From Ricordea florida (taxonomy: Eukaryota; Cnidaria; Anthozoa; Corallimorpharia; Ricordeidae), in assembly GCA_949710005.1 (NCBI GenBank), contig OX453272.1:19183262-19247261 (forward strand): 64,000 nt of DNA, in the 5' to 3' direction. Positions 16,626 through 17,242 of the stretch are shown one piece after another. The notes below the pieces were generated by a model. The model did not search any database. It saw only the letters and a list, made by a program, of their open reading frames with translations, and had not been told where the DNA came from. The position numbers and the translations under genes are program-made. How positions within the stretch are numbered: position 1 is the stretch's first letter; every line of letters starts with the position of its first letter.

Positions 16626-16934
16626 CGATTTTTTTGAAAAATAAACTAGTGAGCAGCACTCTGCGAACTGGTTTTGTAAAACTGATTTATTCTCCTACGC
16701 GTTTCGTCCGACTGTCGCGGACTTCTTCAGGGAGTTTTACAAATGAGAATTACAAGCTTGTATTTATACATAGTGTAAGCCGCGTAAAGTACTTTTACAG
16801 ATTTGTAGCGGATTCACGTACAGGAAACAAGCTAAATTTTCACGCAGGGCGTGACTAAGGTGTAGCATACGTGTGACAAATTTCTGTCATGACGTATGCG
16901 TGACATATTTATTTTTGGGGACCACAGATTTAGT
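16626..16934 (-). repeat. Left arm of the palindromic element
   Basis: This 309-nt arm is about 98.7% identical to the reverse complement of the right arm. Reading outward to inward it has an A/T-run tip, the complement of the hammerhead-like motif (16692-16734), a GC-mixed stretch, a region where CGTGAC or GTGAC recurs at short intervals (around 16848-16902), and the inner end GGGGACCACAGATTTAGT. The strand is given so that the hammerhead-like motif reads in the sense direction. Confidence 0.9.
16692..16734 (-). ncRNA. Hammerhead-ribozyme-like motif, left arm (reverse strand)
   Basis: This is the exact reverse complement of the motif at 17134-17176, with the same stem I (CTCC/GGAG), CTGAAGA core, extra A, GTCCG/CGGAC stem II and GAAACGCGTA end. 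Either strand of the element therefore carries one sense copy. If active, transcripts from either direction would be cut inside the element. Presence of the motif is certain; catalytic activity is inference. Confidence 0.5.
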
Positions 16935-17242
16935 ACTAAATCTGTGGTCCCCAAAAATAAATATGTCACGCATACGTCATGACAGAAATATGTCACACGT
17001 ATGCTACACCTTAGTCACGCCCTGCGTGAAAATTTAGCTTGTTTCCTGTACGTGAATCCGCTACAAATCTGTAAAAGTACTTTAGCGGCTCACACTATGT
17101 ATAAATACAAGCTTGTAACTCTCATTTGTAAAACTCCCTGAAGAAGTCCGCGACAGTCGGACGAAACGCGTAGGAGAATAAATCAGTTTTACAAAACCAG
17201 TTCGCAGAGTGCTGCTCACTAGTTTATTTTTCAAAAAAATCG
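16935..17242 (+). repeat. Right arm of the palindromic element
   Basis: This 308-nt arm is the inverted partner of 16626-16934. It lacks one G relative to the left arm (GCCGCTAAAG against GCCGCGTAAAG on the matching strand) and carries three substitutions. The hammerhead-like motif reads on the + strand at 17134-17176. The near-identity of the arms means they came from one recent duplication-inversion or are kept alike by conversion. Confidence 0.9.
17134..17176 (+). ncRNA. Hammerhead-ribozyme-like motif, right arm
   Basis: Stem I is CTCC (17134-17137) with GGAG (17173-17176). The core CTGAAGA (17138-17144) fits CUGANGA. Stem II is GTCCG (17146-17150) with CGGAC (17158-17162), closed by a 7-nt loop. 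Then come GAAA (17163-17166), a very short stem III in which A17166 pairs with T17171 around a 4-nt CGCG loop, and A17172 as the NUH cleavage base. The order is that of a type I hammerhead with a minimal stem III, as described for Penelope-like elements. The oddity is an extra unpaired A at 17145 between the core and stem II, which could reduce or abolish cleavage. Predicted cleavage is 3' of 17172. Confidence 0.5.

What the first reader, a model, noticed from the sequence alone, without database searches (positions are those of the whole stretch)
16626..17242. Single zero-spacer 617-bp palindrome inside an otherwise pure satellite array
The arms are about 98.7% identical, meet without a spacer, and are unrelated to the satellite. 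It is the only foreign DNA in 64 kb. Head-to-head terminal repeats with hammerhead-like motifs would fit a Penelope-like relic; a foldback transposon is the alternative. Such a perfect palindrome is unstable, so the insertion should be young or the structure must be protected.
Basis: partly seen in the sequence, partly recalled or inferred. Interest (0 to 1): 0.7.

Follow-up and report, generated by a model that had tools for sequence, protein, structure and literature searches.

The report
Head-to-head end of a Penelope retroelement
The palindrome is the smallest insertion product of a young Penelope-like retroelement that is common in this genome, and its relatives suggest that an insertion is built from two DNA copies that start at two separate cuts in the host DNA and meet at a self-complementary hairpin, sometimes duplicating one to two thousand host bases.

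Summary
The palindrome (16626-17242, 617 bp, no spacer, arms differing by 3 substitutions and 1 indel) is real and recurs: its centre is found at 65 places in this 538-Mb genome. Each arm is the pseudo-LTR of a young 3105-bp Penelope-like element with a hammerhead-like motif, a 338-aa ORF1 frame and a 583-aa reverse-transcriptase-type ORF2; no GIY-YIG endonuclease was found in it, and ORF2 is open in 74 of 75 scored copies. A foldback transposon is rejected.

The copies bear on mechanism. The native ORF/pLTR junction carries a perfect 23-bp hairpin whose centre is the palindrome's centre. Outer ends are mostly the 3' tail (53 of 61). Haplotypes differ across the centre in 10 of 32 joints but along a read-through side in 0 of 19. 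Three insertions lie between direct duplications of 987, 1009 and 2060 bp. I infer two target-primed cDNAs, one per target strand, ending in the hairpin and annealing head to head; published self-priming fits less well.

In the window a 140-bp duplication and a 455-bp deletion cannot be told apart. New variant of a known kind; in vitro tests are missing.

The parts
16626..16934 (-). left arm: complete pLTR unit (309 nt) in antisense, haplotype T56/C151/T186
16935..17242 (+). right arm: complete pLTR unit (308 nt) in sense, haplotype A56/deleted 151/C186
16912..16957 (.). central 46-bp palindrome; the same 23+23-nt sequence forms a hairpin at the native ORF/pLTR junctions read in the 3105-bp element
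   Evidence: fold -33.8 kcal/mol
17134..17176 (+). hammerhead-like motif, type I with minimal stem III: CTCC / CTGAAGA / A + 4-bp stem II / GAAA / TA / GGAG; one extra A before stem II; self-cleavage untested
   Evidence: descriptor hit in 0 of 20000 shuffled units; no Rfam match
16692..16734 (-). the same hammerhead-like motif in the left arm
17232..17242 (+). outer 3' tail (CAAAAAAATCG), inferred reverse-transcription start site, right end
   Evidence: 53 of 61 outer ends of relatives lie at unit 300-320
16626..16636 (-). outer 3' tail, inferred reverse-transcription start site, left end
16486..16625 (+). left copy of the 140-bp direct repeat flanking the insertion (satellite); either target-site duplication or flank of a 455-bp target deletion
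17242..17381 (+). right copy of the 140-bp direct repeat (its first G is shared with the palindrome end)

Best explanation
The palindrome is a minimal ('0:0') insertion of a young Penelope-like element. Two ribonucleoproteins each copy a sense RNA from a 3'-OH in the target, one on each strand (paired target-primed reverse transcription). Synthesis starts at the internal tail site just upstream of ORF1 and runs through the 308-nt pLTR. The cDNA then ends in the perfect 46-nt hairpin that separates the upstream ORF from the pLTR. Because that sequence is its own reverse complement, the two cDNA 3' ends can anneal to each other and prime each other's second strand, giving a head-to-head joint with no spacer. 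If one RT reads through the hairpin, that side carries one or more ORFs (1:0, 1:1 and larger products). The spacing of the two target 3'-OH ends decides whether host DNA is duplicated (987-2060 bp in three cases) or deleted. Shown: arm = pLTR, common centre = native hairpin centre, tails outward, haplotype change only at cDNA ends, kb duplications. Inferred: paired priming, termination in the hairpin, mutual annealing. Unknown: whether nicks come from an endonuclease acting in trans or from existing breaks.
For: Arm matches many genomic copies, including 3105-bp tandem units. Head-to-head centre at 65 places. Among 17 junctions not chosen by the centre pattern, 15 join at unit 1|1 with no gap (L017 and L036 do not). 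Of 98 distinct joints in 47 loci, 38 are head-head, 60 tandem and 0 tail-tail (23 loci were picked for being head-head). 53 of 61 outer ends at tail 300-320, also where one side is a lone pLTR and the other has an ORF, which fold-back copying of one molecule does not explain. Haplotypes: discordant across the centre in 10 of 32, along a read-through side in 0 of 19 (Fisher p = 0.008; 0.009 without the C12 array), at pLTR|pLTR joints without ORF in 4 of 7. Direct duplications: L048, the same 0:0 class, 987 bp; L034 1009 bp; L036 2060 bp. Hairpin -33.8 kcal/mol. Published support: the purified Anolis PLE protein cleaves and extends both target strands, starts reverse transcription internally and is predicted to dimerise (PMC11167929, parts 1-2 of 4 read).
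Against: Arms agree more often than random pairing predicts: 9 discordant of 28 against 15.6 expected (P = 0.0004), so both templates usually come from one source, or some palindromes are self-primed. Of 20 insertions with both flanks read outside the window (the 21 minus L038, whose right flank begins with N), 16 showed no direct duplication reaching the borders within the flanks held (about 290 bp to 5 kb a side); a genome search with the left flanks of 8 of them found a second copy in the right place for one, L048 (40 of 2372 candidates scored). L022 fits a 541-bp deletion against one paralogous site. L036, with the 2060-bp duplication, contains an assembly gap, and its joint is 1|813 with a 13-nt filler, so hairpin annealing does not explain it. 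No endonuclease was identified. The RT assignment rests on a partial NCBIfam match (E 2e-4) and motifs recalled by me; Pfam gives none. Some short inverted arms (27-32 nt in L043, L040, L053) barely exceed the native hairpin half. A 0:0 palindrome could also come from a 1:0 insertion by pLTR-pLTR recombination.
Confidence: 0.7

Rival explanations
1. Self-priming: a single antisense RNA (as proposed for rotifer Penelopes) or a single cDNA folds back at the hairpin and copies itself, so both arms come from one molecule.
For: Palindromes at inverted pLTR junctions of rotifer Penelopes (18 and 38 bp) were read this way (PMC3846280, passages and the Discussion read). 22 of 32 junctions here have arms of one haplotype, and agreement exceeds random pairing.
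Against: 10 of 32 junctions have arms of two different family haplotypes, switching at the centre while each side is uniform through its ORF. In ORF:pLTR junctions (10 of 40) the short arm stops at the tail site although a folded-back template would continue into ORF1.
Confidence: 0.15
2. The window copy is a 'solo' derivative: a longer ORF:pLTR insertion lost its ORF by recombination between its two direct pLTRs, leaving pLTR-:pLTR+.
For: 1:0 insertions exist (for example L012, L030, L031) and would collapse to exactly this structure; satellite arrays recombine often (general knowledge).
Against: pLTR:pLTR is the largest of the classes (15 of 40 junctions; some have further pieces outside) in a family too young to have lost its ORFs. 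pLTR-only blocks of different haplotype joined at unit 1 (4 of 7 discordant) show that cDNAs do end after one pLTR.
Confidence: 0.2
3. Foldback or MITE-type DNA transposon with long terminal inverted repeats.
For: Symmetric inverted repeat with no coding region in the window copy.
Against: Arms are the pLTR of an RT-type element present as 3105-bp tandem units. Ends vary, no short target duplication above chance in 20 insertions, and the arms can be of unequal length.
Confidence: 0.01
4. Metazoan retrozyme: a non-autonomous hammerhead RNA circle mobilised by another element.
For: About 300-nt unit with a type I hammerhead-like motif; such retrozymes are known in animals and PLEs are candidates for moving them (PMC7229834, passages read).
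Against: The unit is the pLTR of an ORF-bearing family, the units are not bounded by the ribozyme cleavage site (outer ends lie about 70 nt downstream of it), and the motif is of the minimal PLE kind.
Confidence: 0.04

Closest known systems
Penelope/Poseidon-type PLEs (Adineta vaga Pen2a, Pen3a; Anolis PAc)
   Same: pLTRs in tandem, an extra head-to-head inverted pLTR, a palindrome at the pLTR 5' end, hammerhead motif near the ORF start, internal RT start ('tail') (PMC3846280, passages and Discussion; PMC11167929, parts 1-2 of 4)
   Different: No GIY-YIG domain found and two ORFs; duplications of about 1-2 kb in three cases instead of the 8-10 bp given for three A. vaga cases (others there had none); pLTR-only palindromes are common; arm haplotypes point to two templates
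Endonuclease-deficient PLEs (Athena, Terminons)
   Same: RT without the C-terminal GIY-YIG domain, hammerhead motif (PMC6431247, passages read)
   Different: Those are described as telomere-associated, and the protist and fungal ones are said not to share the pLTR/inverted organisation (PMC3846280); this family lies in chromosome interiors and has that organisation
L1-bridged rearrangements in human cancer
   Same: A retroelement cDNA joins two distant 3' ends and leaves a direct duplication with the element at the joint (PMC7058536, passages read)
   Different: There one cDNA and Mb-scale somatic events; here two cDNAs are inferred and duplications are 1-2 kb
Metazoan retrozymes
   Same: Type I hammerhead motif, about 300-nt units (PMC7229834, passages read)
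   Different: Not part of an ORF-bearing element

Membership tests
Penelope-like elements (broad sense) | PLE-type reverse transcriptase | tested here: inconclusive
   ORF2 583 aa; NCBIfam Drt2 RT match E 2e-4 over 348-422; no Pfam hit at E 10, no relevant PDB hit; PLE-like motifs (DVVSLYPN, AMGTP, FIDDIF) recognised from recall; no tree built
Penelope-like elements (broad sense) | pLTR-ORF-pLTR tandem units | tested here: met
   3105-bp tandem units, C12 array and others
[quoted passage not shown]
   65 places; 40 junctions classed
Penelope-like elements (broad sense) | hammerhead ribozyme in the pLTR | tested here: inconclusive
   motif present in both arms, 0 of 20000 shuffles, but one extra nucleotide before stem II, no Rfam match, activity untested
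Penelope-like elements (broad sense) | 3' ends at an internal RT start site with optional tail | tested here: met
   53 of 61 outer ends at unit 300-320; extra tail copies at 7 of 40 ends
Canonical endonuclease-containing Penelope/Poseidon | C-terminal GIY-YIG endonuclease in the same ORF | tested here: not met
   Pfam on ORFs, six-frame motif scan of the unit; ORF2 matches are 582-583 aa in the 75 scored copies
Canonical endonuclease-containing Penelope/Poseidon | short (about 8-10 bp) target-site duplication | tested here: not met
   20 insertions, none above a mismatched-flank control; three duplications of 987-2060 bp instead
Endonuclease-deficient telomeric PLE (Athena/Terminon) | attachment at telomeric repeats | tested here: not met
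   the listed copies lie for the most part in contig interiors, the window copy in a satellite; telomeric repeats themselves were not searched for
Foldback/MITE DNA transposon | fixed terminal inverted repeats with a fixed short target duplication | tested here: not met
Metazoan retrozyme | ORF-less tandem units that give ribozyme-bounded circular RNA | tested here: not met
   units join to ORFs; circular RNA itself not testable here

The most novel reading that the evidence does not exclude
[quoted passage not shown] Inverted pLTRs would then be the normal product of integration, and the element would be a maker of tandem duplications of host DNA.
Probability: 0.55. Interest if true: 0.78.

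Novelty: new variant of a known kind. Interest (0 to 1): 0.62.

Why it matters
How PLEs, a class of retroelements related to telomerase, complete integration is open: the 2013 rotifer paper left self-priming against other routes undecided, and the 2024 Anolis paper says further steps are yet to be validated. A young family with distinct pLTR haplotypes and some 65 palindromes turns this into a sequence test, and the result favours two templates in about a third of the insertions at least (10 of 32 joints). It gives a concrete role for the 5' palindrome seen in other Penelopes, a reason why purified PLE protein extends both target strands, and a route by which a retroelement can duplicate 1-2 kb of host DNA.

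Tried and rejected
Rfam for a hammerhead model in the window, in the insert and in the 86-nt motif region: none; microRNA-family matches below their cut-offs only reflect the long hairpin. Exact hammerhead string in viral contigs: 0. Pfam, PHROGs and PDB for ORF2: nothing useful. Short target duplications: none above control. Taking the 140-bp repeat in the window as proof of a target duplication: rejected as proof, since adjacent 140-nt segments are identical in 55 of 106 pairs (the insertion pair included) and a 455-bp deletion gives the same register. Reading the arm differences as insertion age: rejected, they are shared family haplotypes. Counts held one or two places twice (overlapping loci); the joint and haplotype counts given are those after dropping 2 repeats. 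Empty sites for L026, L030 and L031: left flank found elsewhere, right flank not within the 501-661 bp fetched. A second batch of seven flank tags did not complete. PMC4209133 (hammerhead motifs in PLEs) is not held; known to me only as a citation.

Full report
What is there. The 617-bp palindrome at 16626-17242 is as described: no spacer, centre between 16934 and 16935, arms of 309 and 308 nt with 3 substitutions and one 1-base indel. It sits in a 595-bp satellite: 107 anchored monomers, all spacings 591-596 except 456 at 2344 and 756 at the insertion. Taking out the insert and one copy of the flanking 140-bp repeat restores the 595-bp register (from the spacings).

What the arm is. A search of the assembly that holds the window (538 Mb, 48 contigs, unnamed; window = C1:19183262-19247261) listed 69 matches to one arm, with only 40 of 324 candidates scored. 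Several lie 3105 bp apart in tandem. The 3105-bp unit (L010:1671-4775, one real copy) is: pLTR (309 nt; hammerhead-like motif at 200-242 in the window arm's numbering), ORF1 (338-aa frame, first ATG in it 27 nt downstream of the tail end), ORF2 (583 aa), then directly the left half of a 46-nt perfect palindrome whose right half is the start of the next pLTR. As RNA this junction folds into a hairpin of -33.8 kcal/mol. ORF2 is open in 74 of 75 scored copies, the other having one TGA (75 of 2514 candidates scored). Profile evidence for a reverse transcriptase is one partial NCBIfam match (Drt2, E 2e-4, residues 348-422); the PLE-type motifs I recognise are recalled, not from a call. No GIY-YIG domain was found in the unit. 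The genome has many GIY-YIG matches (125 listed, 150 of 1215 candidates scored); by eye none of them coincides with the 75 ORF2 places, so an endonuclease acting in trans stays possible.

The hammerhead-like motif. A descriptor with 4-bp stems I and II and the conserved core matches once per unit if one extra A before stem II is allowed, not without it, and in 0 of 20000 dinucleotide shuffles. Rfam has no hammerhead match. Minimal hammerheads lacking helix III are reported as usual in PLEs (PMC6155905, passages read), and the Anolis PLE ribozyme cleaved only with protein present (PMC11167929). Activity here is untested.

The palindrome is a family trait. The 58-bp centre occurs at 65 places with up to 2 mismatches, control 0 (50 places listed, all exact). 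Allowing 3 mismatches gives 84, but native junctions of some copies reach that level. I read 40 head-to-head junctions: 15 have a pLTR on both sides, 10 an ORF-bearing side and a pLTR, 9 ORF-bearing sides on both, and 6 a short arm (L064-L066 were read over 801 bases only). In 38 of 40 the joint is unit 1|1 with no gap; 23 of the 40 were chosen by the centre pattern, and of the 17 that were not, 15 have it, the window included. In 47 loci, with two repeated places dropped, there were 38 head-head, 60 tandem and 0 tail-tail joints. Outer ends lie at unit 300-320 in 53 of 61 cases; the eight exceptions are listed.

Two templates. Six informative sites define haplotypes in 28 palindromes with full arms. 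Arms differ in 9 of 28. Random pairing predicts 15.6, so arms agree more often than chance (P = 0.0004), which tells against fully independent templates and fits two RNAs that usually come from one source locus. The telling pattern is where the haplotype changes (three sites): across the head-to-head centre in 10 of 32, along a side that reads through an ORF in 0 of 19, and at pLTR|pLTR joints without an ORF in 4 of 7. Fisher p = 0.008 for the first two, 0.009 without the two pairs from the C12 array; pairs are not strictly independent. In L012, L030, L031, L033 and L035 each side is uniform over its read-through pLTRs while the two sides differ. In L030 and L031 the ORF-bearing side has one haplotype and in L012 the other, so this is not one inherited mixed palindrome. 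The window copy is one of the mixed ones.

Target sites. L048, a pLTR:pLTR palindrome like the one in the window, lies between copies of a 987-bp segment with exact borders on both sides (C3:9233175-9234161 and C3:9234775-9235761; the ends were compared, not every base). L034 has 1009 identical bp with a 10-nt extra tail piece (part of that region is repetitive). L036 has 2060 bp, C8:5736741-5738800 and 5745660-5747719, borders exact and no mismatch in the 801 bases compared, though the element there contains an assembly gap. L037 has a 2572-base match with 4 mismatches that ends exactly at the tail-side border; its other border was not found in the 351 bases fetched. Three palindromes and their ORF2s on C5 repeat at 14,017 bp. 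Against this, 16 of 20 readable insertions showed no direct duplication reaching the borders in the flanks held (L038 left out because its flank begins with N; L048 came to light only), and L022 compared with one paralogous site looks like a 541-bp deletion. No short target duplication exceeds a mismatched-flank control in 20 insertions, the window included. In the window the 140-bp repeat could be a duplication or the trace of a 455-bp deletion.

Mechanism. Published work on the Anolis element reports that the protein cuts and extends both target strands and starts reverse transcription internally (PMC11167929, parts 1 and 2 of 4 read). The rotifer paper records head-to-head pLTRs with 18- and 38-bp palindromes, TSDs of 8-10 bp in three cases, and proposes self-priming on an antisense template while leaving the matter open (PMC3846280, passages and Discussion read). 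Here the haplotype switch at the centre and the tails on both outer ends, also where the arms are unequal, fit two target-primed cDNAs better than one self-primed molecule. The native palindrome at the cDNA 3' end supplies a reason for the gap-free joint: two such ends are complementary to each other. That last step is inferred. Long duplications follow if the two 3' ends are far apart; a similar geometry is described for single L1 cDNAs bridging sister chromatids (PMC7058536, passages read).

What is new. In the paper searches made (open-licence PMC only, listings seen) I saw no report of two-template arms, hairpin annealing, or kb-scale duplications for a PLE, nor of an endonuclease-lacking PLE with this pLTR arrangement. 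That is a limited search. I file it as a PLE in the broad sense, with the RT assignment not settled by profiles, and not as a canonical endonuclease-containing Penelope.

Noticed in passing
L041, L033, L034, L019, L044, L050 (outer ends): 7 of 40 outer ends examined carry extra short tail copies (TTTTCAAAAAA type), as if a short template stretch was copied repeatedly at the start, reminiscent of telomerase.
   Followed up: partly
G000, e.g. C2:11401803/11403855, C14:21741317/21743860, C11:7542446/7546799: GIY-YIG matches often come in close (-)(+) pairs: 13 pairs within 5 kb counted by eye and no (+)(-) pair noticed, which suggests that endonuclease-bearing PLEs of this genome also insert head to head.
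   Followed up: no
window 2344-2799: One satellite monomer lacks 139 bp (spacing 456); the deletion begins inside the segment that is repeated at the insertion and runs on past it.
   Followed up: partly
G000:C12:11248788-11269824: Head-to-tail array of 3105-bp element units, nearly identical, with open ORF2.
   Followed up: partly
L041:2852-2919 and 3762-3829: 68 bp of the left flank recur inverted about 112 bp to the right of the insertion, as if the target end folded back.
   Followed up: no
G000:C5:12973668-13004805: Triplication with 14,017-bp spacing that contains a palindrome and an ORF2 in each unit, possibly a long target duplication amplified later.
   Followed up: no
L042:50-493, 943-1943: A related element copy about 89-91% identical in part of the coding region lies left of the C12 array.
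   Followed up: no
window 16851-17018: MIR6140 model matches the palindrome centre at 102 bits, below its cut-off of 140, because of the long hairpin.
   Followed up: partly
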